Source of the DNA: Rufibacter roseolus
Lineage (GTDB): Bacteria > Bacteroidota > Bacteroidia > Cytophagales > Hymenobacteraceae
Reading direction: 5' to 3'
DNA length: 64,000 nt
Assembly (NCBI RefSeq): GCF_017916365.1
Contig: NZ_JAFMSU010000004.1
Span: 1 to 64,000 of the forward strand
Numbering within the stretch: the first letter of the stretch is position 1; every line of letters begins with the position of its first letter. This document shows, piece by piece, positions 9,933-58,209 of the stretch. The notes under the pieces are model-generated. The model searched no databases. It was not told where the DNA came from and was given only the letters and a program-made list of their open reading frames with translations. A program made the translations under genes and the position numbers.

Positions 9933-10507
9933 TTGATGCAAAGATAACCAGCCATTCAACGACTTGAATTACAATCGATCCATTCCCCTTTGGACCTCCC
10001 AGGGGACTTGAAGAGGTTTCCTCCCTTTTAGCAGCAAGGAATAAGCGGCCAGCCCCCGCCTATAAGTATGTAATTCAATTGATAAAGAGGGAGAACCACC
10101 ATTGGAAAAACCTACCTAAAAGCACTCAGAAACTAGATTCGCTGGAGTGCCAGTAGTCTATGACAGGCTGCTTGCTTTGCATTCTGCGATTCAAGGAGGA
10201 GTATATCATTAAAGAAGGCACCTTCACCGATTCCTAGAAGTTCAATTATCGCCAGAAAAAAGAGGAAGCTCCCTCCCCTTGAGCAAAACCAAGCTTTTCA
10301 GAAGCAATGGTCAAGTAGGCCTAACAGAACAACCACATGGGACCTGTTGCAATTGGACATGTTGCAATTGGATCTAAGCCCAAAGTCACCTGGCAAGCAC
10401 CAAGTAAATCCCATTGAGCGTATACAAGAGGGATTCAGTGATCAGCTGCCTGCGTCCACCACTCGGCCTTGATTAAACACCTCTCTGGAACCTTAATTCT
10501 CCTGCCT
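9933..10507. other. intergenic with short direct repeat
   Basis: No gene is supported in this stretch upstream of the TIR-STAND gene. The only structure seen is a 13-bp direct repeat TGTTGCAATTGGA at 10345-10357 and 10360-10372, separated by two bases, about 135 bases before the chosen start. It could be a regulator-binding site. Confidence 0.4.
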
Positions 10508-22649: not shown

Positions 22650-22652
22650 GGG

Positions 22653-28514: not shown

Positions 28515-28531
28515 TACGCCACCTCGATATT

Positions 28532-43109: not shown

Positions 43110-43482
43110 GGGAAATAGATTTGAAGTACTTAAACCAAAGGCATACTTAGAAGAATCGCTATTCAAATCCATATTTAAACTTTAAACTAAAGTATCTAAA
43201 GAAACTGAAAGGAGTATCCAAACCGATTTGCTTGCCCAATAAATTTGCAAATATTCACTTTAATTTACTTTAAATAGTTTGATTTTATATTCATCAGCAG
43301 TGGTCAATCTTACTTAAGGCACTTACATCATGACATCATTTCTTTTTATATTTTTATTTACAAACTAAAGATTGTCAAATGATAAGACCTTAAGATTTAC
43401 AATTGGTTGAATGGCCCATAAAATCCCCCTCTTTTATGACCAACAGAAACAGGAAAAGAATAACCTTTTTAAAGAATAGCCT
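43110..43482. other. intergenic, no feature seen
   Basis: AT-rich DNA between the metalloprotease relic and the end of the recombinase gene. No coding frame, hairpin or repeat was recognised. Confidence 0.45.
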
Positions 43483-44154
43483 CTAAACCATTTTATCTTG
43501 GAAGCTTTCAAAAAGATGGTGCACAGTTCCCTTTAAAAAAAGTTTTCCTGTCCTAGTTACATACCCATCGGCGTTCAACTCCTCCGCTATTCTCTGAAAA
43601 GAATATCCTTTCTCCCTATAAATTTTAATTAAGGTGAGCGCCTGCCTGTTTTGCTTGTTCAGCATGGCATTACTTTTTCTTACTTCCAATCCTTTCCGTA
43701 TTGCCTCTAGGGTCAAATTACCAGGAGTGCCCAATTGGAATCCCAATTCCTTTTTTACTTTTAGGGCTGCCTTGGTCCGGGAGGAAATAAGCTCTCGCTC
43801 GTGCTGAGCGAGCACCGCAAAAATTCCAATGGTTAAGGTATTGGCCTCTGGCATATCCGCACATACGAAATCCACCCCACTATCCCTTAAAGTGAAGATA
43901 AAGCCAGCGTTCCGGCTGAGTCGGTCCAGCTTAGCGATGATAAGCGTCGCCTGGTGCCGCTTTGCTTGATCAATTGCACCTGCCAATTCAGATCGGTTAT
44001 TCTTCTTTCCGCTCTCCACTTCCGTGAATTCCTCTAGAATCAAATCACCCTGCTTCACAAACTGGCGAACGGCCGACCGTTGCGCCTCCAGACCTAGCCC
44101 TGACTGACCCTGAATTTTTGTGGACACTCGGTAGTAAGCAACATATTTCCGCAT
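43483..44154 (-). CDS. serine recombinase / resolvase family protein
   Basis: A 223-residue small serine recombinase. The catalytic Ser11 lies in 'AYYRVST'; 'KLDRLSRNAGF' and 'HERELISSRTKAAL' contain the conserved Arg residues of the active site and the E-helix. The C-terminal ~50 residues form a resolvase-type helix-turn-helix ('GYSFQRIAEELNADGYVTRT'). It is complete and looks functional. Small recombinases of this class resolve or invert DNA between short sites. A 14-bp perfect inverted repeat lies 47 bases upstream of the start and is a candidate binding site. No invertible promoter or alternative gene pair was recognised, and its target is unknown. Confidence 0.85.
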   Translation of the reverse strand: MRKYVAYYRVSTKIQGQSGLGLEAQRSAVRQFVKQGDLILEEFTEVESGKKNNRSELAGAIDQAKRHQATLIIAKLDRLSRNAGFIFTLRDSGVDFVCADMPEANTLTIGIFAVLAQHERELISSRTKAALKVKKELGFQLGTPGNLTLEAIRKGLEVRKSNAMLNKQNRQALTLIKIYREKGYSFQRIAEELNADGYVTRTGKLFLKGTVHHLFESFQDKMV

Positions 44155-44201
44155 CTTTCTCTTCCTTCATTCAGAACCTGACAAAACTACCGATAAAAAT
44201 G

Positions 44202-44247
44202 GCTCCGTCAAACTTTACAAACGGTCGTTTAAGAAGTTTGACGGAGC
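44202..44247. repeat. 14-bp perfect inverted repeat upstream of recombinase
   Basis: GCTCCGTCAAACTT (44202-44215) and AAGTTTGACGGAGC (44234-44247) flank 18 bases that themselves contain AAACG-GT-CGTTT. It could be a recombination site, an operator for the recombinase, or a terminator-like hairpin. The remaining bases between 44155 and 44586 hold no gene that I can see. Confidence 0.6.
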
Positions 44248-44586
44248 TAAAATAGGATCAACTTGTGGCTTTTATAGTCAAGTTGGGCAAAAGGAAAAGG
44301 CGAGGATTGACAGTATAATACCCGAACCAAGGATCACTATTATTTTATAGCAGGGGAGGGCCTATAAAATGAGTAATGGCTATTCCAATGGTGGACTCAT
44401 CACAGGAATAGCCATCAGGCTTTAGAAATCAACCTTAAAGTTCATTAGGGAATCTTGAAGAGGTTAAGCTAGAGTATTCGGTCGGCACCACATGGCCAAT
44501 ACGAACATTATAGATATGTATTTAGCATATCTCTATAAATAACGCCTCTAACTATGTTTGATCCATGCATCTCACTTCGGTTACAG

Positions 44587-45552
44587 TTAATCAAATTGTA
44601 AATTTCTGACATAGTCCTCTGCGTAAAACACTATCATTCCATTTGCATCAATTTCTACCTCACATTTTATCCGGCAAGACTGCTTCTTTTGCAAAGATTT
44701 TCGGAAACACCCGTAATCAGCCCAATATTGGTAATGGGTTGTACCGTCATAGGATTGAATAGGGACTAAGGTATTATTGTCTATTACATAGACACCGTTC
44801 GCAAATTCAGAGAGGTAGTCTCTCTGAAGGTTATTAATCTGGCCGGGGGTCATCCCGGTTGATTTGATATACCTTTTCACATTAGGGGCAAAAAAGTCAT
44901 GAGCCTCAAAATTATAGCTATTTACCGCACTATAATATGATTTGATTTTTTCTACAACTTCCTCTTTCGTGAAAGTAACAGCTGGTCCGTTGTCATCAAC
45001 CTCCACCTTTTCTGGTTCGGCAACAGGAGCAGAAGAAGCCACAGCAGAATCTTCAAGCGTTACTTCGCTCGGCACATCCTCACTAACCGTTTGACTATCA
45101 ACGGCGATGGAATTATCAACGTAACTTTCTACGCTGGATCTTTCTTGAGGTGTCACATTTTCCTCTGAGGTCGCCTCTTCAGTAGCTTCATTATCCGGTA
45201 TTGGAGAAGCAGGTATGGAGGTTGTCGCTTGATTCCCCACAAAAGCAAAGCTACACAATACTAAAATTGTAATTATGGAAACCGCAGTGATCATCTTGTT
45301 TAGGCGGAACCGTCTTTGGGCGGCGATGGCTCCGGCTGCGGCACCCAATACTAGCCCCAAAAACCCATATCCTACCCAAGGCTCCTCTGAGAGCTGGCCA
45401 TATACCGATTGGTCTAACCCTATGAAAAGATTTGTTGCTAGGTAGCTTAAAATATAATAGATAAACTTCAAGGCTATCCAAGCAAGATATAACCCTAATG
45501 CACCTAAAGCCAGGTACCAGATTTCAGAATTCTTGCCCTTGTTCGTACTCAT
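44587..45552 (-). CDS. membrane protein with C-terminal NTF2-like domain (Hsp70/tubulin cluster)
   Basis: A 321-residue protein, last gene of the eight-gene cluster, overlapping the previous gene by four bases (ATGA). Three hydrophobic segments (residues ~12-40, 62-82, 88-107) are followed by an ~85-residue Ser/Glu/Pro-rich linker and a C-terminal ~125-residue domain. The domain's layout ('VVEKIKSYYSAVNSYNFEAH', 'YWADYGCFRKSL', 'VFYAEDYV') resembles NTF2/SnoaL-like folds. The C-terminal domain is probably on the outer face of the inner membrane, although its orientation is inferred. No catalytic residues are evident. Function unknown. Confidence 0.62.
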   Translation of the reverse strand: MSTNKGKNSEIWYLALGALGLYLAWIALKFIYYILSYLATNLFIGLDQSVYGQLSEEPWVGYGFLGLVLGAAAGAIAAQRRFRLNKMITAVSIITILVLCSFAFVGNQATTSIPASPIPDNEATEEATSEENVTPQERSSVESYVDNSIAVDSQTVSEDVPSEVTLEDSAVASSAPVAEPEKVEVDDNGPAVTFTKEEVVEKIKSYYSAVNSYNFEAHDFFAPNVKRYIKSTGMTPGQINNLQRDYLSEFANGVYVIDNNTLVPIQSYDGTTHYQYWADYGCFRKSLQKKQSCRIKCEVEIDANGMIVFYAEDYVRNLQFD

Positions 45553-47624
45553 GATATTTTTGGTTTAGAAATTTTTATAAGCACCCTAACAAAACCATAA
45601 GAAAGCCCAACCAAGAGCAGCATGAAACAAAGCCCCCAATATGCTTCTCCAGCGCCACCTTCTGTAGCTGAATCTATAGGAAATAGAGCTCCCTGTTGAA
45701 GTAAGCCTCTGTATCCAGCTCCAGATATTTCTTCCAATAGTAATCGTGTAATACCAATTATCAGGCCTAGGGAAATAGCGGAAAGGGAAACGAATTTAAT
45801 AAACTCCTTTGATGGGAATACCGCTTCGGCTACCACTGACACTTCTTCTCTTTGGTAAGCTGATGAGATTAAGAGCGTTCCTGTATGTTGCCCATCTCTA
45901 GGCATCAGAATTGGGTTGCCATGAACTGTTATCTCAAACTTTTGCCCTGGCATTCTCTGATCGAAGAATATCTCATCAGAAGAAATACGCACCCCATCTA
46001 ACGGCGTCAGCATGGAAATTTTCACCCTGACGTAACCACCAGTGGTATTTGAAAGAGTAATTACCCTAGCTGCCTCTACCTCTCCGCTTAGTCCGGTTAA
46101 CTCCACCAAGCTAAAATCCACCTCAATCTTAGGTGTAGTTGTACCTGACACTAAAGCTTCTAAAAGTGCTTGGACGGAAAGTTTACGAGCCTTTTCGGAG
46201 TTCTTCTCTAGCCCCACTCCTATAAGAACACGAGCCAGCTCAGCCTGTTTTTCCAGGATGTCATTTTGCCCAATTGCGTTTAGCCAAGGACTCAAATAAC
46301 CTGAGGAAAGAGAACCATATACCACTTTCCAGCTTTCTTCCTCATGTGTTATGAAATTGGCCAGCTGAGCAGGGGTCGCAAAGGAAATCTCGCTTATCCA
46401 TAAGGGAAATTGAGGATTAGCCTTATGAAGGAATTCCCGAAAATTCAAGGAATTTTTCCCTACTGGAAGAGCGGCTTTTACCTCAGCCGTTGCTGAGGCA
46501 TTTATCCATATCTGCAGATTGCCGGCTTTGAATGCTTCCTCTGCTAATGAAAAATCATGAGCCGATACAGAGGCCCGTTCTAAAAGTTGTGCAGGACTGG
46601 TAAATGCTTCTGTGTGTTCATCAACATAGAAAGGCATACCTGGTCCTAACAAATACAGAATACTAAGCCTTTTCTGAATAACCTTTAACTTCCTATTCCC
46701 TAGAATATCGCGGATATCCAATAAAGCATCATTCTCTTTTAGGTCATGTGCTATGTTTGTTAGATAGTCCTCAGTATCTAGATTACGGGCAGCTTTTTCA
46801 TCTCCTGCCACCAAGGCATTATAAAGTACTAGGCCAGCCTCTTCTAAACTGTAGACATCATGGCCCATGACCTTGGTATGGGGGCGACCAGTAAGGGGTT
46901 CCCCCCCAGGGGTCCAAGAGGAGAGAAGAAGGTTTGGATTTTGATTGATTGTTTTAACTGGAGCAAAACCTGCTGTCCTTAAACTAGACAGCAAATACTC
47001 TTCCGCCTCTGCGGGCTCAAATCCCTTTGCTTGGCCTTCAGCAAGGGCGAGTTTTATTGCGTCTGGACGCATAAGCTGATTAGCCAGCTGGTGACGCATA
47101 TATTCGCCCATTTCTGCGCTTGCCTTCTGACGACGCCGGTTATTTAGCTCATTGAAGCACCTTTCTCGGTTATCCGCGCCTGACAACGCCACCACTGCCG
47201 CATCAAGCCTTTCCTCTGCCTTGGCGATGGTTCCTGGCTTATAAATTTCATCCAGTGACTTATTACCCGTAATGAGCAATATTCTTTTCCGTTCCCAGAA
47301 AGCTTTCAAGACAGTGGCATTCGCCTGAACTTGGGCATCTGTAATGTGCTCAAAAAGACTTGCTGCCAGGTAAAGCCTTGCGAATACATCCTCTCCTAAA
47401 ATTGTCTCCCAATCTTGCCCATCTTCGTAAGCGGCTGGCACGGCCACCATGGCACCATCTTTGGTTGCCTCAATAAGCCGCTGTGCCAAAGTAGTAGAGG
47501 AGTCATGAGACTGGGGAACAGGTGGGACATCCGAAATGTCCGTTTGGGTTGGTGCCGCACTATTGCCTATCCGTCTACCTTTTAGGGTAGGAGTGGGGTT
47601 AAGAGAAGAGCCTAACTTGGCCAT
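45549..47624 (-). CDS. large helical/beta-sandwich membrane-anchored protein (Hsp70/tubulin cluster)
   Basis: A 691-residue protein with no signal peptide. Residues ~40-320 are helix-rich and charged, ~330-480 mixed, and ~490-600 a beta-sandwich-like segment ('ITLSNTTGGYVRVKISML', 'ISSDEIFFDQRMPGQKFEI'). Two hydrophobic helices at ~604-626 and 660-682 end the protein, so it is anchored by its C-terminus with a large cytoplasmic part. No family is recognised. Position directly after the short Hsp70 gene suggests a client or co-chaperone-like partner, which is inference. It overlaps the next gene by four bases. Confidence 0.6.
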   Translation of the reverse strand: MAKLGSSLNPTPTLKGRRIGNSAAPTQTDISDVPPVPQSHDSSTTLAQRLIEATKDGAMVAVPAAYEDGQDWETILGEDVFARLYLAASLFEHITDAQVQANATVLKAFWERKRILLITGNKSLDEIYKPGTIAKAEERLDAAVVALSGADNRERCFNELNNRRRQKASAEMGEYMRHQLANQLMRPDAIKLALAEGQAKGFEPAEAEEYLLSSLRTAGFAPVKTINQNPNLLLSSWTPGGEPLTGRPHTKVMGHDVYSLEEAGLVLYNALVAGDEKAARNLDTEDYLTNIAHDLKENDALLDIRDILGNRKLKVIQKRLSILYLLGPGMPFYVDEHTEAFTSPAQLLERASVSAHDFSLAEEAFKAGNLQIWINASATAEVKAALPVGKNSLNFREFLHKANPQFPLWISEISFATPAQLANFITHEEESWKVVYGSLSSGYLSPWLNAIGQNDILEKQAELARVLIGVGLEKNSEKARKLSVQALLEALVSGTTTPKIEVDFSLVELTGLSGEVEAARVITLSNTTGGYVRVKISMLTPLDGVRISSDEIFFDQRMPGQKFEITVHGNPILMPRDGQHTGTLLISSAYQREEVSVVAEAVFPSKEFIKFVSLSAISLGLIIGITRLLLEEISGAGYRGLLQQGALFPIDSATEGGAGEAYWGLCFMLLLVGLSYGFVRVLIKISKPKIS

Positions 47625-47663
47625 AAAAAATATTATATAAGATAATAGAATCGAACCACTATG

Positions 47664-49205
47664 TTAGTTTAGTTCTAATTGCACTGATTGAACACGGGAA
47701 GTCAATTCATCTAAATTGATATTTGTCCCGTATGGCTGTATCACTTTTTGGATGGTATGGCCGTCATAGCTAACACTGGCTTCTATCATCCCACCTGCGT
47801 CAATCGCCAGACGAACTTTAACATTTCCCTCCGGGTTGCCCAACTGTAGCTCACCCAAGGGGCCACGTGCATAATCTCTTATTTTGTCTGACTCTCCCTC
47901 AAAGACCTTCAAAGTGGCGTTCGCATCAGCCTCAAAGGTATCCTCAAAGACAGCCTGTGGAATAGGAGTGTTTTTCTTGAGCAGAAGCTCAACGAAAGGC
48001 TGACCAGTGTCACTTATTAACTCAATTCCTATACTGTGGGCCACGACGTCAGTTACAGAATCTTGCTGGCGCGCATAAAGAGCTGCTCCAATACTGATAG
48101 CTGTGTCGTAGTTAAAGCCAGGCCGGTTTAAAGTTATTTGTCGGTTTGCTTCCTGCGCCAGCATCTTGTGAATCATGGGCATTCTGCTTGACCCACCAGC
48201 CAGAACAATGTCATCAATGTCATTCCAGCCTAGTCTTGCTTCATTGAGAACCAGCTGCATGATTGTTCTACACCTGGTAATCAAATCCTGACTGCGGTTT
48301 TCAAATAAGAATTTCCTAGCTGCGCCTGGGCTGCGCATGAAAACCGGCTGGGAAGCACCCTCCCTATCCAAATCCAACTCCATTACCTCTGCAGGTAAAT
48401 CCAACCGAAGCTTTATCTGAGAGGCATCAGAAAGAGCTATTTTCGCCTTTACAGCTTGTTCCTGTACCAGCCAAAGAAGTTCGTCTGGTACCGGCTTGCC
48501 ATAGCGCTCAAGGTGCTCATGGCTTACGTGCTGCTCAATAAGTTCATCCCAGTCTTTCCCTCCCAGCTCATCAGCACCATTAGAGGCGATAACCTCTGCC
48601 TTGCCGCGGCCTGTTCGAATGATGGTCACATCAAATGTTCCACCGCCTAAATCAAAAACCAGCACCTTACGATCCTGCTCAAGACTCATTCCAAAGGTTA
48701 GAGCCGCGGCCGTTGGCTCATTGATAATTCCGATAACTTTAAGGCCTGCAGCCAGCGCCGCCATTCTGGTCTCGCGGCGCTGGTTTTCTTTAAAATAGGC
48801 TGGTACTGTAATTACGGCTTCAAGTGCAGCATTCTCTGCCCCATTACCCTCTATTATGCCTTTCTTTATGAAGTGGCTTATGGCGCCAGCCCGCAGATAT
48901 TTTAAAAGTAAGGCTTGCATGCCTGCAGGCTGGTAATCGTATCCTCCAATTTTATACTTCCCGCCGAGGCTCTCAGCTGATTTACCCATATCACGTTTGA
49001 AAAACTGATATACTGGGTTAACCAGGTTTACTCTACGGGCAGCAGCTTTGTGACCAAAGCTGGCAACTTTCCCTGTAAAGAATATAATTGATGGAGTTGT
49101 TTGATTGCCCTCTAAATCAGGTATCACAACAGGCACCCCATCCTCACCAATATAACTTACACAACAAAAGGTAGTACCTAAATCAATACCAATAATAGGC
49201 ATCAT
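47664..49205 (-). CDS. short Hsp70 (DnaK-like) chaperone
   Basis: A 513-residue Hsp70. The ATPase domain is complete: 'IIGIDLGTTFCCVSY' (phosphate 1), 'IINEPTAAAL', 'VLVFDLGGGTFDVTII' (phosphate 2) and 'IVLAGGSSRMP' (adenosine loop). The substrate-binding domain keeps the beta part ('SIGIELISDTGQPFVELLLK', 'FEGES') but lacks the helical lid of ~640-residue DnaK. It is therefore a specialised Hsp70, not the housekeeping one. Its ATG-ATG start overlaps the stop of the giant Hsp70-like gene, so both are translationally coupled. Probably works with the other cluster proteins. Confidence 0.9.
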   Translation of the reverse strand: MMPIIGIDLGTTFCCVSYIGEDGVPVVIPDLEGNQTTPSIIFFTGKVASFGHKAAARRVNLVNPVYQFFKRDMGKSAESLGGKYKIGGYDYQPAGMQALLLKYLRAGAISHFIKKGIIEGNGAENAALEAVITVPAYFKENQRRETRMAALAAGLKVIGIINEPTAAALTFGMSLEQDRKVLVFDLGGGTFDVTIIRTGRGKAEVIASNGADELGGKDWDELIEQHVSHEHLERYGKPVPDELLWLVQEQAVKAKIALSDASQIKLRLDLPAEVMELDLDREGASQPVFMRSPGAARKFLFENRSQDLITRCRTIMQLVLNEARLGWNDIDDIVLAGGSSRMPMIHKMLAQEANRQITLNRPGFNYDTAISIGAALYARQQDSVTDVVAHSIGIELISDTGQPFVELLLKKNTPIPQAVFEDTFEADANATLKVFEGESDKIRDYARGPLGELQLGNPEGNVKVRLAIDAGGMIEASVSYDGHTIQKVIQPYGTNINLDELTSRVQSVQLELN

Positions 49206-52200
49206 AACATCTTCTCAAGCATAATATTTAACAGATAGCGAACCTCCATAATGAATACTGGTTCAATCACTCGTTGGCTTGGCTCCTGAGTTGCAAGGCG
49301 GGCAAAATCATTTCGTACGTTATTGCGAATCGCCATTCTTTCCTGATTGTTAAGGGTAAGTTGCTCCCCAGGAGGGATGAACCCGGTATCCTGACCCACC
49401 GCGTTAAGTACCTCCAGAAAGTAATCCAGTTGACTTTGGTTAGAATCTTGAAAATGAGTAGTATAACTTTTAAAAAGGTCATCTGATAGCAAAGGTAAAT
49501 AAGGAGGGTTATGACCTAAACCCAAATTCACAGACTCACCCATTACTGTTCCCTCCAAGGTAGTTTTTACTTTTGGTGCACCAAAGACAAAGCCTCCAGA
49601 TTTAGCGGCTTGTACTCCACCGGCCCTTTCTATATTATCAATCACGACAATGCCACCAGCTGCCTCATTTTTCTGGCCGTCCTTCTGCTTCTTTTGCGCT
49701 AAATATTCATAAGGAATATTCATGCGCTCAGCTTCTGGAGCCACCTCACCCATTACCACGCAGGCAAAAAGGTTATTCAAGAAACTGGCAGCTAATCCAT
49801 CTGGCTTAAATTTCCCGTGGTCTATCCAATCCAGCATCTTACTTGCGTTTCCACCCCAGTGCAACATCAAACCTGAAGTAGATACTGACCGTCCAAAACC
49901 GCCTTCTAAAAACTTGTCCAGCGCAAGCGCAAGGTGACCCGCATAGAAAGCAAGAGCCCCAAACTCAACAACCAGTGCCCTCCGCAACTGCACCACATCT
50001 TTGATATTAGAATATTTGGCAAGCTTGTCCGATATCTCTTTATGCTCTGTGCGTAGGATGTAATTCATCCTAGAAGCAAATTTACTTCCTTTGGATTCGC
50101 GTAAGGCAACATTCGCCTCAGGGCTTAACAAATGATCACCAATACGACCATTACGCGCCATGACTTCAGCAATTTGTCGACCAGCTAAAAGAACTGAAGC
50201 ATCATACTTTATTTCATTACCGAACCAAATACTGAAATCAGTAGTCCCTCCACCAACATCAATACAAATTGATCCGCCAGTTTTATTTGCTCTATCTTCT
50301 GCAGCCCTTATGGTTTTATCATTTGAGAAAAATTCTCCAGCTGCAATTCCCTCAGTTACAAACTTTGGGGCTGATGCAATACCTAATTTGCCAGCCTTGG
50401 TTTGGAGTGAAATTATCCCTCCAGGTTCTAGGGTCCATTCACCAGCGGGCGCATAAAGTAACTTTTGACCATCAACCAAGTTTTCAGCTTGACCATCTTG
50501 GGCAAACAACCCATTAAGGGTACTTTCCCATTTGCTGCGGTAATCTGTTTCCCGCGAGGTATTGAATGATTTTGGGTATGTGCAACGGAACTCAATTCGT
50601 CCTACCCTCTGTCTAACCAAATCCACTAAAATCAGGAAAACAAGCGCCTCTAGGTAATTATTAAGGTTCTCAGTGTTTTCATCTTCCCACTTTAAGTCTA
50701 CCAACACATTCTCTGGGTATCTCGGCTGGTCTGGGAAATACAGGAAATAGTCTAACAACAAATCTTTCCGAACCCCAGGATTATATTCACGCAATGCCGT
50801 TGGAGTAGGCATATTCACATCCTTGACAGGAACAAAGAAAGCTTGTGCCAGAGATGCGCGTTTATCTGGTTGGGCCGCTAGAAGCGACCGTAGATACTCA
50901 CTTTTAAAGCGCAATGCCAAAGGCTCTGCTTGTTCGTCTTGGAGAGTAAATACATTGGTGTTTGAAGTACCAAAGTCCACACCAACAATTGCTTTCTTAG
51001 AAAAAGACTTCATCTCTAAGTTGCGATCCCTGCCCACTAAAATTAACCCGACAGGGTTCAGATTGCCTCTTTCGGCAATTTCAATACCCTCTGGAAAGCA
51101 GTCTACTCCGCTAATTCGGGTTAACTCTGCTTTCAGACGATCATTTGATGTATCTAGCCTCTGCTGACGATTCTTTAAATAAAAGTGATCTGAACCAAAA
51201 TGCACTGGTGTAGCGGCTAAACGCTCTGTATCAGAGAAGAGTAAATAGTATCGTGCCCAAAATTCTCCCATGTAATTCGGGAATAGCTCCAGGACAGGAA
51301 CTTCTCTTTCTATTAAAACACCTTCCCCTTCAGCTTGGATTGCCCCCTTTGAAAGATAGCGCTTCTTGATCAGAAGACTCTGCCCATTACGGAGCGGGAG
51401 ACGCATGCTGAAAATAACTTGGTCATTTTCTTCGGCATATGAGGGTTTTAACTTATCTGTGATATCCTCTACAGAAAAGAATTGAAGTATTTCTTTCCGG
51501 AGGGGTAGCAAATAACGACTAGACAACCCATTGGCGCTGGCCTCGGCCTGTGGAATGAAGTTATCATTGCCTGATGCTTTGGTTAAGGTCGAAGTAAGAA
51601 AATAAAGTTCTGGGCGAATCCATAGTCCTTTATCTTTGCCAATATCTGTGTTATTTATTTTTGTTCCAGAAGGCTCTTTAAACAATCGCCTTATTGGGTC
51701 TGGCCCCAGTTCAGCAGGTTTGACACCAGGCCAAAGCTTTAGGTTCTGGCCGAGTAGCCCAGCGTCAATAAGAATCACATGCTCTAAATGCTTTGGCATT
51801 CTTTGGGGGTTCACCTCCAGTGCATAATCGGAAGATGGCCCTACTTTCGCATTTTTGTCTGGTTTTAATGGTCTTAATAGTAACTGGTATATACCACGTG
51901 GACCTAGGAAACTTGCCTCCGGTATCCGCTCTGCCTCCTCGGCAGGTTGAAAATCAGCGGCATCAATTGGAGCATGTTCTGAAATTCCTAAAGCTAATTT
52001 GATATCAAGAAGCCAGGCACGCAACTCTCTGTTGATAGTTTCAACAACGACATGATCCTGGCTACCCGCCACCTGCTCAGTATTCGCAATGGCAGAAAAT
52101 TCTGACGCAAACCATTGCACCCATTCCCCTACACTTTCTAAGTCCTCAAGATTATCAGGCGGGGATAGATACCCCTCCGAATCCTTGAAAGGAAAAGATT

Positions 52201-52723
52201 TTGCTTGCAGCTTTAAGTTGTAATCCGCGGAGGTAAAAGCTAGAGTAACGGGTGAAAACGCCCCTAAGGTAACTCCCTCGTACTGCACAAGAAGGAAATC
52301 TGTCCAGTTGTAAAGATCTGCTCCCGACTGTAAACGAATTGACCGGGGCGCAAGGTTACTTAAAGCCTTGGCCAAACGGCGATCATCTCCTGGATTGATG
52401 CTTACCGGCTTGAATTTGATTTCCTGTTTTAAATCAGGTTTTATCTCCCTTAGAGCCAATAAACTTAATAGGCCACGCCATTCCTGAACCACCCGGCTAC
52501 GCATAGGATGGTCCTTTTTATCAAGAGCGCTTTGAAAAGTTAATGGTCTTGCAAAAGCGTCGGGAACTGAAGATACCCCAGACTGTGACTCTGGGGCAAC
52601 CTCTATTCCTTTTGCAATGGATAGGATGATACTTTTATCTTGGGCTTCCCAATGGCCATTTTGCTTAGGTTCAGATACATTAGCATCGGAAAGCTTGGGC
52701 AGATATAGGTGCTTTTTGGACAT
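49202..52723 (-). CDS. giant Hsp70/actin-fold ATPase
   Basis: An 1173-residue protein. The actin/Hsp70 nucleotide fold begins only near residue 575: 'AIVGVDFGTSNTNVFTLQD' (phosphate 1), 'GSICIDVGGGTTDFSIWFG' near 815 (phosphate 2) and 'LMLHWGGNASKMLDWID' near 950 (adenosine loop). About 570 N-terminal residues have no motif I recognise; they contain several beta-rich stretches. The C-terminal 150 residues are also unassigned. Size and layout recall SrfB-type virulence proteins, but that is a comparison from memory. There is no signal peptide, so it is cytoplasmic. It starts 17 bases after the tubulin-like gene stop and overlaps the Hsp70 gene start. Confidence 0.82.
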   Translation of the reverse strand: MSKKHLYLPKLSDANVSEPKQNGHWEAQDKSIILSIAKGIEVAPESQSGVSSVPDAFARPLTFQSALDKKDHPMRSRVVQEWRGLLSLLALREIKPDLKQEIKFKPVSINPGDDRRLAKALSNLAPRSIRLQSGADLYNWTDFLLVQYEGVTLGAFSPVTLAFTSADYNLKLQAKSFPFKDSEGYLSPPDNLEDLESVGEWVQWFASEFSAIANTEQVAGSQDHVVVETINRELRAWLLDIKLALGISEHAPIDAADFQPAEEAERIPEASFLGPRGIYQLLLRPLKPDKNAKVGPSSDYALEVNPQRMPKHLEHVILIDAGLLGQNLKLWPGVKPAELGPDPIRRLFKEPSGTKINNTDIGKDKGLWIRPELYFLTSTLTKASGNDNFIPQAEASANGLSSRYLLPLRKEILQFFSVEDITDKLKPSYAEENDQVIFSMRLPLRNGQSLLIKKRYLSKGAIQAEGEGVLIEREVPVLELFPNYMGEFWARYYLLFSDTERLAATPVHFGSDHFYLKNRQQRLDTSNDRLKAELTRISGVDCFPEGIEIAERGNLNPVGLILVGRDRNLEMKSFSKKAIVGVDFGTSNTNVFTLQDEQAEPLALRFKSEYLRSLLAAQPDKRASLAQAFFVPVKDVNMPTPTALREYNPGVRKDLLLDYFLYFPDQPRYPENVLVDLKWEDENTENLNNYLEALVFLILVDLVRQRVGRIEFRCTYPKSFNTSRETDYRSKWESTLNGLFAQDGQAENLVDGQKLLYAPAGEWTLEPGGIISLQTKAGKLGIASAPKFVTEGIAAGEFFSNDKTIRAAEDRANKTGGSICIDVGGGTTDFSIWFGNEIKYDASVLLAGRQIAEVMARNGRIGDHLLSPEANVALRESKGSKFASRMNYILRTEHKEISDKLAKYSNIKDVVQLRRALVVEFGALAFYAGHLALALDKFLEGGFGRSVSTSGLMLHWGGNASKMLDWIDHGKFKPDGLAASFLNNLFACVVMGEVAPEAERMNIPYEYLAQKKQKDGQKNEAAGGIVVIDNIERAGGVQAAKSGGFVFGAPKVKTTLEGTVMGESVNLGLGHNPPYLPLLSDDLFKSYTTHFQDSNQSQLDYFLEVLNAVGQDTGFIPPGEQLTLNNQERMAIRNNVRNDFARLATQEPSQRVIEPVFIMEVRYLLNIMLEKML

Positions 52724-52740
52724 TACTTTGAGAAAACAGA

Positions 52741-54312
52741 TTAGCGATGGGCAGTGTTATCCTTGTTAAATTCAACAGCCGCCCTAAAAAAGATATTGAG
52801 GTATTTGTCTGCCGCATCTTGTGTGGCATCTTCAATTACACTTCTATTATTGTCGTTTAAAATTGCATAATAGTCATAGAAGTTCTTTCCTGCCTGTTTA
52901 TCACGCAGAAGCCTGCCCAAGTTTTCATGGTGCATCTCTGGATTCCGTAACGCTAAAGCATTTCCCCTTGATTGTGTATCAGAGGAGTTTAGTATCATGT
53001 CCTTATTTATTAGACGCACATTTTCTCCCTCGTCCAAATCAGTTATCCACTTTAAGAATAGAGAGGCAAAATCCGCTGCTTTATCATGTAAGTCTTTATT
53101 CTTTCCATGAGCAGGGTTGTGTCTAGCACTGTCTTCCTGGTAATTTTTAAAACTGTCACTATACCATGGCAACTTCTTTACCTCTTTATATGGTTCGTTA
53201 AGGTATTTTCTTCCAAGCGTCAGGTAAGTAAAAGAGAAAAGGGTAAATTCACTTATACAAGTTTTAAATTTGTCACGCATTTCAGGAAGTTTCAACCCAT
53301 TCCTAGTGAGCGGCAAATCACCCCAGCTCACATCTTTTGTGTCACGGCTTGCAATAAAATAGCTTTTATCCGCACCATCCCCTGGAGTCTCTTGGGCAAA
53401 GAAATCAAATGCGGCCAAAGCCGATGCCAATTCAACATAATGAGGGCGATTTTCCTGCGTTGAAGTGCCAGTTGAAAACGGACCTACATCCTGGCCCAGG
53501 GAATCTCCTATAAAATAATACTGATCGAACGCCAGCTGTTTATCATTATAATAATGAAGGGCAGCTTTAGTCGCGGCTGGAAAATCCTGCGGCGTAACAA
53601 ACATTTTCTCACCCTTAGTATTATCTACTTTAAAGTTAAAATATGGAAGCACCAATGCGCCCCCTAAAAGCACTTTGCTCCGGCCTACTCCTAGAGCGGT
53701 TTGCAAATCCTTATTATACTTCAAAACTGCATCTGCTCCCAATGTTGGGAACCCAGCAGCGCCAGTACCACCAAAGATAGAACCGACCAAAAACACGCGA
53801 GCGGAGCTGGCCTCAGAAGGCATATTGTCCTTCAGCATCTTAAAAGGATATTTGTCCATAGGGGGATTCGCCATTACGACAGCGCCTATGGAGGGATGAC
53901 CTCGGAAGCCTTCATTAAGCGCTGTATCCAATTCAAGTTGGGTGAATAGCAAGTCCGCGACGGAAGCAAGGGATTGATCCTGAGACTTCAGGTTTTCATA
54001 TCCAATAAATTTTGCCAAGGTTTGATCTGCCTCGTCAAAAATTGACCAGATAAAAGGTGCATCGCCTTCTGGGATAATAATGTCCGTTTGAAAGGCAGGG
54101 TTGTTTTCTTCTCGCTTGAAGGAGCTTCTTAAGGAGCGGTACTTTTGTATTAAAGTTTTTGTACGAGTTAAATTACCGTTCCCGTTATCAGGGTCAATGA
54201 GCATAAGGTGCACCTTTCCCTTCGGCCCATATCCTGCTGCGCAACAATGCACAAAGGCCTCTAGCACCCGTGATCCTGTGCCACCGATACCAATCAAAAA
54301 ATTTTCTTGCAT
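52741..54312 (-). CDS. tubulin/FtsZ-like GTPase family protein
   Basis: A 523-residue protein. The N-terminus has a Rossmann-type glycine loop 'FLIGIGGTGSRVLEAF' and 'LMLIDPDNGNG'. Near residue 170 stands the tubulin signature-like loop 'GSIFGGTGAAGFP' (family form GGTGxG). The order and spacing suit bacterial tubulin-like proteins (Pfam Tubulin_2 type), which differ from FtsZ. It would bind GTP and perhaps polymerise. There is no membrane segment or signal peptide. It lies 17 bases before the giant Hsp70-like gene and 23 bases after a small membrane-protein gene, within one operon. GTPase activity and filament formation are inferred. Confidence 0.78.
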   Translation of the reverse strand: MQENFLIGIGGTGSRVLEAFVHCCAAGYGPKGKVHLMLIDPDNGNGNLTRTKTLIQKYRSLRSSFKREENNPAFQTDIIIPEGDAPFIWSIFDEADQTLAKFIGYENLKSQDQSLASVADLLFTQLELDTALNEGFRGHPSIGAVVMANPPMDKYPFKMLKDNMPSEASSARVFLVGSIFGGTGAAGFPTLGADAVLKYNKDLQTALGVGRSKVLLGGALVLPYFNFKVDNTKGEKMFVTPQDFPAATKAALHYYNDKQLAFDQYYFIGDSLGQDVGPFSTGTSTQENRPHYVELASALAAFDFFAQETPGDGADKSYFIASRDTKDVSWGDLPLTRNGLKLPEMRDKFKTCISEFTLFSFTYLTLGRKYLNEPYKEVKKLPWYSDSFKNYQEDSARHNPAHGKNKDLHDKAADFASLFLKWITDLDEGENVRLINKDMILNSSDTQSRGNALALRNPEMHHENLGRLLRDKQAGKNFYDYYAILNDNNRSVIEDATQDAADKYLNIFFRAAVEFNKDNTAHR

Positions 54313-54335
54313 AATTGTGAAAAGAGGAGCTGGGA

Positions 54336-54794
54336 TTATTTACCGTAAGGCAGGTTCTCAACGGCCCTTGGTGAGAAAAGAAAGGTAACAAACCAGTAAA
54401 GCAGGGCCGTAAGTGCTAAATTGACGAAGAAGTAGATAGCGAACCACTTGGATTCTATACCCTCTTCTCTGTTTAAATACCAAAGAATCGCAGTTAAAAT
54501 TATTGAGATTGTAAAGAGCAGCAGAAAAAATTGCGTGTATTTGCTTTTAGCTTCTTTTAGTCGGGTTGCAGTTGCAGGTTGGGTTCCATAAAAGTACCAA
54601 TAGCAAGCCAATCCGATTCCAAACACTGCTGCTATTCCAAAGATGGTACGTAGAAAATCGGCCAACTCCTCTGGAGATTGTATAGCTAAGCTAGGTCCTT
54701 CTGTAAAGGTCTCAGCTAGAAAGATGCCAAATACAGCCCAAAGCACGCCACCGATTACAACAGTAGCCAAATAGTTAATAGGTGAAGTTTTCAT
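54336..54794 (-). CDS. small four-helix membrane protein (Hsp70/tubulin cluster)
   Basis: A 152-residue protein with four hydrophobic segments (about residues 8-28, 47-68, 88-108 and 120-142), separated by short polar loops; the last lies in 'AIYFFVNLALTALLYWFVTF'. No conserved polar residues in the membrane spans suggest transport. It is placed between the vWA-like lipoprotein and the tubulin-like gene, 23 bases before the latter. It may be a membrane platform for the system, but there is no family evidence. Confidence 0.6.
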   Translation of the reverse strand: MKTSPINYLATVVIGGVLWAVFGIFLAETFTEGPSLAIQSPEELADFLRTIFGIAAVFGIGLACYWYFYGTQPATATRLKEAKSKYTQFFLLLFTISIILTAILWYLNREEGIESKWFAIYFFVNLALTALLYWFVTFLFSPRAVENLPYGK

Positions 54795-54842
54795 AAAAAA
54801 GTGATCCGAGGTGAATGTGATTTAAGAATTAAAAAAAATAGT

Positions 54843-56144
54843 TTATTTGCGACCGAAAACAAGATACATCTTGCCGTATTTAGGCTCGAATTGGGTAGCT
54901 GAATTGACAACAAGGGACCTAACAAGGGTCTCCAATTCAAGTGTCTTATTTTCATTGCTTCCTTGGCGAAAATCCTGTGTTGAATTATCTGTAACCCAAT
55001 TAGGGAGCTGAATCTTTCCTAAATTGTCGTATTCCCATACAATCTGATAGGCAGAAAAATCACCTTCCTTTAAATCTAGGTTGACAGTAGCCTTTCCAGT
55101 GAACTTAGCCGGATCAGCTTTTAATACTTCTAAGTTCAGGCTTTGCTCATCCACTAAAGAATCCTTTGCTGCATTGTCTTTCCTGTAAATCCGAGCCTTC
55201 ACATTCTGCGGATTTACAGGCAATGCATATGGCTCAAGCTTGAAATTGACAGTATATTCAATGGTTGCTTTTGAGCCTTTATCTGGGTTCCAATTAAAAG
55301 CATAAATGTTTCCAATATCAGCAAACTGTTTCCTAATAGAGGAAACATTGATGGATTTGCTTTCTTTTGCCTTCTTAGCTTCAGCAGTGAAGCTTTTAAT
55401 TGGATACCGGGTAAGCAATAAAGCTTGATCAGCCTTGACGTAAGGTTGATTCCTGAATGCGGAAAAGATTAAACCTATATTAGCTTTAGACCCAAAGACA
55501 AGAAGGTAAAGCGGACGCTCTCCATTTACTTTTACAGGTGGCTGAACATCGGCAACATACCCGTTAAATTCACTCTTCAAGCCTAAGAGTCCCACTTCCA
55601 CGCCATTCTTGAAGCACTTATCTTGTATAGCAGCCACAACTTTATTCGCATCTGCATTGCTATAGAAAAGATCTGTGATAAAAATAGAAACACGACTAGG
55701 GTCTACACTGTCAACAGCCTGCGCAAAGTTGGTCTCTGATCTAAAGCCTTTGTCATCCCACAAGGAAGGGCTATTACGGGCAGCCACAAAGGCATCTCTT
55801 TCCAGCGGAGCCACTGATCGCCCATATTTATAAAATTTAATCTCAGAACTTTTAGCAGCATTCTGCACAACGGCTTCAATGCCCCCCAACAACCTGGAGA
55901 AAGTTGTTGCCTGCGGTTGAGCAAAACCCTGCATTGAGTAAGTAGCATCCAAATAAATGTCTACTGGCAATCGAGACCCTGCCTTACTTCCAGAGGAAGA
56001 AGATCCAACTACATCGGAGAAGTAATAATGAAAATCTGGATAGCTTTGATTTTTTTTAGATGAGACCTCCTTATCGCTACTACAGGATAAAACATACAAA
56101 AAACAAAAGAGCAAGAAAAAAGGAGCAAGTAATCGTTTAATCAT
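54843..56144 (-). CDS. vWA-like domain lipoprotein (Hsp70/tubulin cluster)
   Basis: ATG 56144 is chosen: it begins a lipoprotein signal 'MIKRLLAPFFLLFCFLYVLS' directly followed by the lipobox Cys, while the in-frame GTG 56177 adds 11 residues before it. The 433-residue protein has a von Willebrand A-like core: 'LPVDIYLDATYSMQGF', where the usual DxSxS MIDAS loop is changed to DATYS, then 'VSIFITDLFYSNAD' and 'GVEVGLLGLKSEF'. The second half is a beta-rich region. It is anchored to the periplasmic side or to the outer membrane. As a vWA-type domain it probably mediates protein assembly. It precedes the membrane protein by 48 bases. Confidence 0.75.
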   Translation of the reverse strand: MIKRLLAPFFLLFCFLYVLSCSSDKEVSSKKNQSYPDFHYYFSDVVGSSSSGSKAGSRLPVDIYLDATYSMQGFAQPQATTFSRLLGGIEAVVQNAAKSSEIKFYKYGRSVAPLERDAFVAARNSPSLWDDKGFRSETNFAQAVDSVDPSRVSIFITDLFYSNADANKVVAAIQDKCFKNGVEVGLLGLKSEFNGYVADVQPPVKVNGERPLYLLVFGSKANIGLIFSAFRNQPYVKADQALLLTRYPIKSFTAEAKKAKESKSINVSSIRKQFADIGNIYAFNWNPDKGSKATIEYTVNFKLEPYALPVNPQNVKARIYRKDNAAKDSLVDEQSLNLEVLKADPAKFTGKATVNLDLKEGDFSAYQIVWEYDNLGKIQLPNWVTDNSTQDFRQGSNENKTLELETLVRSLVVNSATQFEPKYGKMYLVFGRK

Positions 56145-56256
56145 GATAATTATATAGTTATAGAAATTATATAGCACAGTAAAACTATGTTAATTTCTTG
56201 AATATCCCAGGATCCAAAAATGTCTTTTTCAATGATTACCATTAAGCATTCCGGCT

Positions 56257-56628
56257 TTATTCCTCTTTTGAAAGCTCATTTATAAAAGACCTAGTTTGGC
56301 CAGCTAAGTCATGAAAATCTTCTTTGATGTTTCTTAGATCATGCTTAACCTTTATGGCATTATATTTACCTATTAGCCTATTGATTTTTTCTCTTTCGCC
56401 CGAATTTAATTTATTTTCATAGAGGGCTATCCTTTCTGCACATAATGTAAGATATCGCTCTTCAACCTCACTCCATTCTTCTTCAGAGTACGACTTTTGA
56501 TTGGTTTCTACCTCCTGGACTAAACTCTCCAAATCTTCAATAGAGCCATTCTTTGTGTGAAGATTACAAGATGATAAGTATGGTAAAAAAAATAGCGGAA
56601 CTATAAGCAATTGGCTTCTAAATTTCAA
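56257..56628 (-). CDS. small helical lipoprotein
   Basis: A 123-residue protein with a TTG start at 56628. An in-frame TAA directly precedes it and no ATG precedes the signal, so the TTG is the only start that keeps the lipobox ('FFLPYLSSCNL'). The mature part is Glu/Lys-rich, almost wholly helical and probably coiled coil ('EEERYLTLCAERIA'-like register). No family is recognised. It lies 112 bases before the vWA-like gene on the same strand and may be the first gene of the cluster; the longer spacing leaves this uncertain. Confidence 0.55.
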   Translation of the reverse strand: MKFRSQLLIVPLFFLPYLSSCNLHTKNGSIEDLESLVQEVETNQKSYSEEEWSEVEERYLTLCAERIALYENKLNSGEREKINRLIGKYNAIKVKHDLRNIKEDFHDLAGQTRSFINELSKEE

Positions 56629-56975
56629 TTAATTGGCAATAAAGGGGTTGTGTAAAATTTATTAAAGTATAAGAAGCCAATGGGGGATAGAGCTCCTAGA
56701 ATATATCAAGAATTTATATGCAGTTTAGATATTTTAGTAGAGAAAAACAATTGCTGGTGTCTAATTAGAAAATAAAATGATTAAAATAATGAAGTGAACG
56801 GAACCAAACCCAAACCTCATGAAACACAATTGTTTGATTTTCTTTTGATTAGACTTATTACGGCAGTCGCCTTCAAAGATCTCTGCTTCGGAGCATCGTC
56901 GCACACAACCTTCCTGGCACTCCTTGATGTGAAAGCTTTTATTTAAAATATATGATAGCAGCCATTAAGACAATT
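56629..56975. other. intergenic, probable promoter of Hsp70/tubulin cluster
   Basis: AT-rich DNA between the cluster's first gene and the interrupted amidohydrolase gene, both read leftwards. No gene or clear consensus promoter was identified. Confidence 0.4.
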
Positions 56976-57719
56976 TCACAAACCTTTCTTGAGCATTTGA
57001 ATGTACTCTACCACTATATCCTTAATTCTACCATATCTACTGGCCTTTTCATTAGTGGGCTCGTTTAGATAGAGTCTTCTATTTATTTCAAGCATAATGG
57101 ATTGCACCCTTTTATCCTTCTGATAATAGCCCATCGGCACGATTGTACCACAATAAGGCCAATTTACCCCAAGGGAATACCCTTTGCCTTGGAAGAACTC
57201 CACAGAGGAGTCAATAAGCCTCTGTGGAGTATGGAAGTTATCGGTACCTATATTAAAATCAGGCCTTTCGGGATTTTGATTTAGATCCCTCAACAGCGGT
57301 ATGCTAGGAAAGGAGTGGCAGTCATGTATCAAAGCCTGTCCGTATTTCTCAAGTTAGATTCCAACGGCTTTATTTAACTGAGCATGATGCTTCCAATAGA
57401 AATGGGTTAATATCTTTTCTCTTAGTTGTTCATTTACTTCCCTAATGATATTACCCTCGTCACTTCTTTCATATAAGACCCCCATCCCTACTTCTGCCAT
57501 TACTTCCAGTTCATCTTCAGAGAATCTTTCTGGATCGCAGAAAACCCTTGAAAAATTAGCAACAAAAGAAATACCACCCTCAGATTGGAATAATTCTTCT
57601 GTGAACCAATCAGTTAACTTAAGCATTTCCGCTTGCAGAAACGACTCATTGACAATAAAGCCTTCTTTTAAAGGAATATGATTGGATGCATCGGGGATAT
57701 GCAGGATTAACTGTTTCAC
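56976..57719 (-). pseudogene. N-formylglutamate amidohydrolase-like gene with in-frame stop
   Basis: One frame runs from GTG 57719 to a stop at 56976 and is broken by a single TAA at 57354-57356. Reading through gives 247 codons of continuous family-like sequence. Before the stop it reads 'LILHIPDASNHIPLKEGF' and 'FVANFSRVFCDPERF'. After it come 'LEKYGQALIHDCHSFPS', 'DFNIGTDNFHTP' and 'GYSLGVNWPYCGTIVP'. The His/Asp/Glu pattern is that of metal-dependent N-formylglutamate amidohydrolases, which free glutamate from formylglutamate. A single base change could create TAA from a sense codon. The lower half could restart only from an alternative codon and would lack the N-terminal metal ligand, so the gene is probably inactive. 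Confidence 0.75.
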
Positions 57720-58209
57720 AAAATAAATTAAAAATTATATTCTACAGAATGGGCAAAGTCAGAGTAAAGAAAAAAATAAAATTCTTACATAAAAGGAGGT
57801 AGGTAAAATGAATCCTTTTGAAGTAATCTAATATTCTCTATTCTATTAAGTGTTAAGGTTGCGCCCTACAACTATGACTCCCCATGTAGCCACTTTAATA
57901 TACCATATATCTTTTTGTACATTTATAGCCCTTGAATCTATCATTACAAAATACGTCCATCATCTTTCAGATATGTTGCCACAATAGGCTATACCCCAGA
58001 AAATGATTTACACTAACAGTTTGGTTTCTCCTTTGAAGTCAAATCAGATTTTACACTTCTAAATTGACAGCTAGATTAATCTAAGCAAGATAAGGTCATA
58101 GATTCTAGCACAGTACACGCAGAGCAACAAGTTTACAAGCTTGCAATTTAAGCAAAGGAGGGACAATTACAGACTATCTTTGGGCGACAAAAAATAATCT
58201 TTTCTTCCT
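57720..58209. other. intergenic divergent region
   Basis: About 490 AT-rich bases between the interrupted amidohydrolase and the HDAC-fold gene, which point away from each other. It should hold both promoters. No gene, repeat or hairpin was recognised. Confidence 0.45.

What the first reader, a model, noticed from the sequence alone, without database searches (positions are those of the whole stretch)
44587..56628. Eight-gene operon with two Hsp70s, a tubulin-like GTPase and a vWA-like lipoprotein
Read directly: eight minus-strand genes, mostly tightly spaced with two stop/start overlaps, encode two lipoproteins (one vWA-like), a four-helix membrane protein, a tubulin-like GTPase, an 1173-residue Hsp70/actin-fold ATPase, a lid-less 513-residue Hsp70, a C-terminally anchored 691-residue protein and an NTF2-like membrane protein. 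Actin-fold and tubulin-fold NTPases in one operon with envelope parts are rare. I infer an assembled membrane-spanning machine (conflict, contractile or surface-assembly system), which I cannot match to a named system.
Basis: partly seen in the sequence, partly recalled or inferred. Interest (0 to 1): 0.82.

Follow-up and report, generated by a model that had tools for sequence, protein, structure and literature searches.

The report
Plasmid-borne tubulin-actin envelope machine
A bacterial plasmid carries a set of genes that looks like a membrane machine built from a tubulin-like protein, a giant actin-like protein, a heat-shock-type chaperone and an envelope sensor; relatives of its core occur in other bacteria, sometimes joined to a flagellar-type motor, and what it does is unknown.

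The parts
54843..56177 (-). vWA-like lipoprotein (444 aa from the GTG; an in-frame ATG at residue 12 is the likelier start). MIDAS-like D-A-T-Y-S, T, D; lipobox Cys
   Evidence: Cys32 and Asp169 invariant in the 20 rows aligned; profile match to canonical VWA weak
54336..54794 (-). small four-TM membrane protein (152 aa)
   Evidence: four hydrophobic segments; same position in relatives
52741..54312 (-). tubulin/FtsZ-fold GTPase (523 aa), T4-like loop FGGTGAAG
49202..52723 (-). giant actin-superfamily ATPase (1173 aa): unassigned region about 55-570, actin/MreB/FtsA-like core 575-1039, C-terminal helices
   Evidence: (DFGTSNTN, DVGGGTTD and GGN motifs mostly invariant or nearly so)
47664..49205 (-). 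DnaK-like Hsp70 without lid (513 aa), branch-A module
   Evidence: ~510-aa orthologue in 5 of 5 other branch-A loci that extend this far
45549..47624 (-). ~690-aa protein with two C-terminal TM segments, branch-A module, no known family
44587..45552 (-).
56257..56628 (-). 123-aa lipoprotein, DUF6565-like; co-directional but not part of the conserved unit
   Evidence: DUF6565 E 2.2e-7; no homologue in 6 other branch-A loci
43483..44154 (-). serine recombinase (resolvase/invertase type) beside the 3' end; possible mobility gene, not part of the machine
   Evidence: Resolvase E 1.4e-26; PHROG DNA invertase E 2.4e-32

Best explanation
This is branch A of a family of envelope machines with a fixed four-gene core. 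SHOWN by computation: gene order, the tubulin fold, the actin-superfamily fold, the Hsp70, membrane segments and a lipoprotein cysteine. INFERRED: the tubulin-fold GTPase and the giant actin-fold ATPase co-assemble beneath the inner membrane, as FtsZ and FtsA do. Their nucleotide cycles are passed through the small multi-TM protein to the vWA-like lipoprotein, which binds a ligand in the envelope through its metal site. In branch A the assembly is controlled by a dedicated lid-less Hsp70 and anchored or read out by the ~690-residue tail-anchored protein and the 3-TM protein. In branch B the output is a MotAB/ZorAB-like proton-driven stator tied to peptidoglycan. The likeliest use is a switchable envelope response to stress or an invader (a conflict system), because branch A is sporadic and it and several relatives are carried on plasmids or an integrative element.
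For: Core order vWA, small TM, tubulin, giant on one strand in 20 of 23 loci examined (L038, L039, L040, L045 and L046 supplied their own reference proteins, and L007 and L048 are one strain); also read by eye in two further mobile loci, where only tubulin and giant match by BLAST. Folds. 35 of 120 listed giant homologues share an identical longest-contig length with one of 120 listed tubulin homologues, against 0.3 expected by jitter. Tubulin and giant trees both recover the groups A, B (with L039) and C. Stator pair in branch B: ZorB1 E 8.7e-11, MotA_ExbB in 4 of 12, ZorB1 in 10 of 11, invariant MotB-type Asp. The organism has a separate ordinary FtsZ. Plasmid setting; cyanobacterial plasmids; relaxase and integrase beside L092.
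Against: No interaction, polymerisation or phenotype data. The vWA assignment is weak by profile, and in 10 of the 14 non-branch-A rows the first MIDAS Asp is Glu. Deeper joins of the two trees disagree: the tubulin tree joins A with B (91/87), the giant tree A with C (98/95), with long branches. PADLOC gives only weak hits to the eight proteins, the best E 0.001. Branch B is nearly fixed in the family (34 of 37 family genomes), which looks more like housekeeping than defence. The restriction genes seen on this plasmid lie 13 kb or more from the operon. The N-terminal half of the giant was not tested as a separate domain.
Confidence: 0.45

Rival explanations
1. A constitutive envelope-remodelling or envelope-biogenesis machine (as Makarova and Koonin proposed for FtsZl1 operons): the polymers shape or organise membrane and cell wall, and the accessory modules are alternative couplings. 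No conflict role.
For: Branch B is near-core in the family, 34 of 37 genomes, and carries an OmpA/MotB peptidoglycan-type protein. Abstract and Findings section of PMC2875224.
Against: Branch A is rare: 1 of 16 genomes of the genus, 3 of 390 in the order, 1 of 395 in the class, 1 of 395 in the phylum sample with a full-length match; and it is plasmid-borne here. The samples overlap, and at most two candidates a genome were scored.
Confidence: 0.33
2. A derivative of the GTPase-centred tubulin/HSP70/vWA conflict systems (GAP1-N2 type, Kaur et al. 2020) that replaced the P-loop GTPase switch by the giant actin-fold ATPase.
For: Same theme of tubulin, HSP70, vWA and TM proteins ending in SH3 or NTF2 domains near the membrane (section 29 of PMC7159879; SH3_3 in L006).
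Against: No GTPase or GAP1-type Pfam model among hits at E up to 1 for the eight proteins; those tubulin and HSP70 themes are described as non-overlapping and mainly in firmicutes and actinobacteria.
Confidence: 0.13
3. A plasmid segregation system using a ParM-like and a TubZ-like filament.
For: The locus is on a probable plasmid; ParM is among the top folds of the giant; weak PHROG 'partition protein' hit E 6.6e-4.
Against: The same core lies on million-base contigs in Dyadobacter (L007, L048) and in the genome of L047, and in branch B; it encodes a lipoprotein and several membrane proteins; no iteron array in the two flanks examined.
Confidence: 0.04

Closest known systems
FtsZl1 / Tubulin_2 (PF13809) operons, Makarova and Koonin 2010 (PMC2875224; abstract and Findings section read)
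   Same: Diverged N-terminal FtsZ/tubulin domain, operon with vWA protein and membrane proteins, OmpA-type proteins in some (here in branch B); present besides ordinary FtsZ
   Different: No extended coiled-coil tail (523 aa; their type protein has 1051), no P-loop GTPase or kinase gene found; an actin-superfamily giant and, in branch A, an Hsp70 instead. A search for 'hsp70' in that main text found 0 occurrences
GTPase-centred GAP1-N2 systems with tubulin, HSP70 and vWA, Kaur et al. 2020 (PMC7159879; sections 28 and 29 read, other passages seen)
   Same: Tubulin, HSP70, vWA and TM proteins with SH3/NTF2 domains near the membrane
   Different: No DO-GTPase, GAP1, GrpE or FNIII component among the Pfam hits here; Bacteroidota and cyanobacteria rather than mainly firmicutes and actinobacteria; giant actin-fold protein
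FtsZ-FtsA division pair
   Same: Tubulin-fold GTPase plus actin-fold ATPase at the inner membrane (location inferred here)
   Different: Both far diverged (FtsZ rows 12-17% identity, FtsA rows 9-15%), the giant is about three times larger, and the genome keeps its ordinary FtsZ
Zorya ZorAB / MotAB stators (compare branch B only)
   Same: MotA/ExbB-like protein with long C-terminal tail next to a MotB/OmpA-like protein with the conserved Asp
   Different: Embedded in the vWA-TM-tubulin-giant operon; no ZorC, ZorD or ZorE hit among the five of seven L038 proteins scanned; no such pair in the window's operon

Membership tests
FtsZl1 / Tubulin_2 operons | N-terminal FtsZ/tubulin-type domain | tested here: met
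FtsZl1 / Tubulin_2 operons | GGGTG(S/T)G GTP-binding loop | tested here: inconclusive
   Loop is FGGTGAAG, invariant in 76 sequences; near but not identical
FtsZl1 / Tubulin_2 operons | Extended coiled coil after the FtsZ domain | tested here: not met
   523 aa; longest helix in the model is 34 residues; no coiled-coil predictor was run
FtsZl1 / Tubulin_2 operons | Operon with a vWA protein | tested here: inconclusive
   vWA-like by MIDAS residues; profile comparison weak, P 0.001 with 20 rows and 0.057 with 6
FtsZl1 / Tubulin_2 operons | P-loop GTPase partner (frequent, not universal) | tested here: not met
   No P-loop GTPase family among Pfam hits of the eight proteins; Walker-A-like words in only 3 of 57 core proteins scanned, all three in giants and not conserved
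GAP1-N2 GTPase conflict systems | DO-GTPase and GAP1 genes | tested here: inconclusive
   No such Pfam hit at E up to 1; that Pfam holds models of these is recalled, so absence is not proved
Hsp70 (513-aa protein) | Nucleotide-binding domain and substrate-binding beta domain | tested here: met
   HSP70 profile 1-494 of 599, E 2.2e-77; DnaK structures, best E 7.5e-58
Hsp70 (513-aa protein) | C-terminal lid | tested here: not met
   Match ends at 494 of 599 profile positions, residue 489 of 513
Hsp70 (1173-aa protein) | Hsp70-specific sequence family | tested here: inconclusive
   No PF00012 hit at E up to 1; NCBIfam PRK11678 'molecular chaperone' E 1.6e-4 over 46 residues, beside ftsA E 8.3e-5, both far below cut-off
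Actin superfamily (1173-aa protein) | Actin-type ATPase fold with phosphate and adenosine motifs | tested here: met
Zorya (branch B relative, not the window) | ZorA/ZorB plus ZorC-D or ZorE | tested here: inconclusive
   ZorB1 8.7e-11 and ZorA3 3.5e-4, no ZorC/D/E, but only five of the seven L038 proteins were scanned
ParM or TubZ plasmid partition | DNA-binding adaptor and centromere repeats | tested here: inconclusive
   No iteron array in 43400-44700 or 56600-58300; adaptor not sought

The most novel reading that the evidence does not exclude
A categorically new kind of bacterial machine: a tubulin-fold GTPase and an actin-fold giant ATPase form a joint cytomotive base that drives or gates envelope modules, in one branch a proton-powered MotAB-like stator and in the other an Hsp70-controlled anchor, used as an exchangeable, mobile envelope-response system. 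It would join tubulin, actin and rotary-stator families in one operon.
Probability: 0.3. Interest if true: 0.9.

Novelty: new variant of a known kind. Interest (0 to 1): 0.72.

Why it matters
Tubulin-fold and actin-fold proteins meet in known bacterial biology mainly at the division ring (FtsZ-FtsA; established knowledge). A second, separately inherited pair, fixed in gene order with a lipoprotein and in one branch with a flagellar-type stator pair, would offer a new setting in which to ask how cytomotive polymers talk to the envelope and how stators are repurposed. Branches A and B coexist in this one organism, so each could be deleted and compared in the same strain.

Tried and rejected
SrfB (PF07520) as identity of the giant: no hit; the genome search rang nowhere, even in controls, so a distant link is not excluded. 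PF13809 over 15 relatives rang in none, not even in the own genome, though in 3 of 14 controls: that model misses these tubulins at its threshold.

Phage origin: no match in annotated phages for the giant or the tubulin; no relative of the giant confirmed in viral contigs; two tubulin relatives at 27% there, one of them (L092) beside a relaxase and integrase, so perhaps an integrative element rather than a virus.

PADLOC: only weak hits to the eight proteins at E up to 1, best 0.001. PHROGs, 7 of the 8 operon proteins (Hsp70 left out) plus the recombinase: one weak partition-protein hit to the giant.

TerD-like reading of two small genes after L092's core: by eye only, no Pfam hit, dropped.

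PDB profile searches for the tubulin and the vWA family: nothing usable. The Bacteroidota promoter pattern (recalled) had 2 matches in the window against 2.16 expected: uninformative.

In the phylum search 379 of 395 genomes 'match' the giant profile at E 1e-3. The listed ones apart from the own genome are mostly short stretches around positions 790-840 in frames of about 270-500 aa, read by me as MreB/FtsA cross-matches and not counted; not all were listed. The three with frames over 1100 aa were followed up (L038, L039, L040).

Rows left out: the vWA and small-TM alignments hold 20 rows (L048, L061, L065 and L071 not included); the trees hold 19 (L004, L048, L061, L065 and L072 not included). 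L073 was fetched and not analysed.

Literature: searches listed no paper that I recognised as describing this gene set; most listed papers were not opened, the library lacks most subscription papers and no bioRxiv collection is held. PMC9871819 and PMC12505986: passages seen. PMC12839542: term search only, nothing found. PMC11890865: search listing only.
Full report
OBSERVATION. Pfam gives HSP70 for the 513-aa protein (E 2.2e-77), Tubulin_2 for the N terminus of the 523-aa protein (E 6e-5, below cut-off), only weak FtsA/MreB (E about 0.03) for the 1173-aa protein, DUF6565 for the first, 123-aa gene, and nothing above cut-off for the others. NCBIfam gives DnaK-type models for the 513-aa protein and weak ftsA (8.3e-5) and 'molecular chaperone' PRK11678 (1.6e-4) stretches for the giant. 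PADLOC has only weak hits, best 0.001.

MEMBRANE AND ENVELOPE PARTS. The 152-aa protein has four predicted TM segments, the 691-aa protein two near its C end, and the last gene three near its N end (the same hydropathy scan also marks giant residues 917-935, a helix inside the actin-like core). The vWA-like protein has a lipobox Cys and an Asp invariant in 20 aligned rows, and reads D-A-T-Y-S at the MIDAS position; that first Asp is kept in 6 of 6 branch-A rows but is Glu in 10 of the other 14. hhalign to eight canonical VWA domains gave only P 0.001, probability 21%, with 20 relatives and P 0.057 with the six branch-A rows; an unrelated control gave P 0.49. I keep 'vWA-like'.

CONSERVATION. 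Capped searches returned 158 giants and 1442 tubulin relatives (the best 120 of each listed), in Bacteroidota and, by source names, Thermoanaerobaculia, Rhodothermaceae, Calditrichaceae and Longimicrobium. In 23 fetched loci the core order vWA, small TM, tubulin, giant is complete on one strand in 20. The exceptions are L004 (contig ends after the tubulin), L046 (vWA gene inverted) and L065 (only giant and MotA detected). Two further loci, L091 and L092, show tubulin and giant by BLAST with a lipoprotein-like and a TM gene before them by eye. Independently, 35 of the 120 listed giants share an exact longest-contig length with one of the 120 listed tubulins, chance 0.3, and 6 of 20 homologues of the 691-aa protein, the window's own included, share one with a listed giant. 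In Hymenobacter psoromatis the 691-type, giant and tubulin genes bear the tags 15260, 15270 and 15275. In 19-row trees, tubulin and giant each recover groups A, B (with L039) and C. Against simple co-inheritance throughout, the deeper joins disagree: tubulin joins A with B (91/87), giant joins A with C (98/95); long branches make both unsure.

TWO BRANCHES. Branch A (window, a Hymenobacter MAG, Foetidibacter, a Chitinophagaceae MAG, Dyadobacter) has the ~510-aa Hsp70 in 5 of 5 other loci that reach that far, and the ~690-aa protein in 4 of 4. The 123-aa first gene recurs in none of 6. The gene after the ~690-aa protein is a 3-TM protein in the window, L006 and L007, whose C-terminal domain varies; in L006 it is SH3_3. 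Branch B lies on a 1.7-Mb contig of this organism (G000:C2, L038): vWA, small TM, tubulin, giant, coiled-coil-type TM protein, MotA/ExbB-like, MotB/OmpA-like. MotA was found in 11 and MotB in 10 of the 13 branch-B loci, plus both in L040; L066 and L068 show neither, L068 being cut by a contig end. Evidence for the motor pair: ZorB1 8.7e-11 and ZorA3 3.5e-4, PF01618 in 4 of 12 members, ZorB1 in 10 of 11, with several other MotB/OmpA models also matching members, invariant Asp15 in the MotB-type helix. The window's operon has no such pair.

DISTRIBUTION. Branch A: only the own genome among 39 relatives has a full-length match (two further E 4e-4 hits are short), 3 of 390 in the order, 1 of 395 in the class, and 1 of 395 in the phylum sample with a full-length match (whose own tally at E 1e-3 is 379, mostly short MreB/FtsA-type matches). 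These samples overlap and at most two candidates a genome were scored. Branch B: 36 of 59 relatives, i.e. 34 of 37 in the family and 2 of 22 outside it. The organism also has an ordinary FtsZ.

SETTING. The window is part of contig C4 (101,922 bases). Its ends overlap by 89 exact bases, a 974-codon open frame reads across the join, and it carries a Rep_3 initiator (E 9.6e-32). A plasmid of about 101.8 kb is the simplest reading, although the end overlap lies in a repeat-protein gene and could be a repeat break. The plasmid also carries McrBC-type genes and a type I restriction system, 13 kb or more from the operon. Distant core relatives are on plasmids in five cyanobacterial records (three read), a tubulin relative lies in a 1.77-Mb Prevotella record of the plasmid collection (not followed), and L092 lies beside a relaxase and integrase. 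No match in annotated phages.

MECHANISM. Shown: folds, order, membrane segments. Inferred: FtsZ-FtsA-like co-assembly of GTPase and giant beneath the inner membrane; signal passage through the small TM protein; ligand binding by the vWA-like lipoprotein; Hsp70-controlled assembly in branch A, stator output in branch B. Conflict or stress response is favoured by patchy, mobile carriage of branch A; near-fixation of branch B argues for a housekeeping envelope role. I give the machine model with that use 0.45, with envelope remodelling as the main rival.

COMPARISON. Makarova and Koonin 2010 (PMC2875224, abstract and Findings read) described FtsZl1 operons with vWA, kinase, P-loop GTPase and OmpA genes; Kaur et al. 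2020 (PMC7159879, sections 28-29 read, other passages) described GTPase-centred systems with tubulin, HSP70 and vWA parts. The present system shares themes with both; the P-loop GTPase, GAP1 and the long coiled coil were not found, and there is an actin-superfamily giant. I found no description of this gene set in the searches named under Tried and rejected; hence 'new variant of a known kind'.

Noticed in passing
G000:C2:836675-840127 (L038:4746-15404): Second version of the same core in this organism, on a 1.7-Mb contig, followed by a coiled-coil-type TM protein and a MotA/ExbB-like plus MotB/ZorB-like pair; near-core in the family.
   Followed up: yes
window 1-64000 as part of G000:C4 (101,922 bases): Contig looks like a circular plasmid: 89-base end overlap, ORF across the join, Rep_3 initiator at L042:4658-5701.
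   Followed up: yes
window 21381-25295 and 25726-31399: McrBC-type pair and a type I restriction-modification system (M, S and R genes) on the same plasmid.
   Followed up: partly
window 10469-14407: 1312-aa protein with a TIR-looking N terminus (by eye) and a HEAT-ARM PADLOC match (E 5e-17).
   Followed up: partly
window 56976-57719: Two adjacent ORFs that look like pieces of one N-formylglutamate amidohydrolase-type gene (by eye, not profiled), upstream of the operon.
   Followed up: no
window 44202-44247: 22-nt inverted repeat between the serine recombinase gene and the end of the operon.
   Followed up: no
window 58210-59745: 511-aa protein with a histone-deacetylase-type domain (E 4e-18).
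   Followed up: no
L092:6220-16872: Core relative beside a relaxase and a tyrosine integrase, followed by a TPR protein and two similar ~192-aa proteins without a Pfam family.
   Followed up: partly
NC_022111.1:623718-624644: Unannotated tubulin relative (33% identity) in a 1.77-Mb Prevotella record of the plasmid collection.
   Followed up: no
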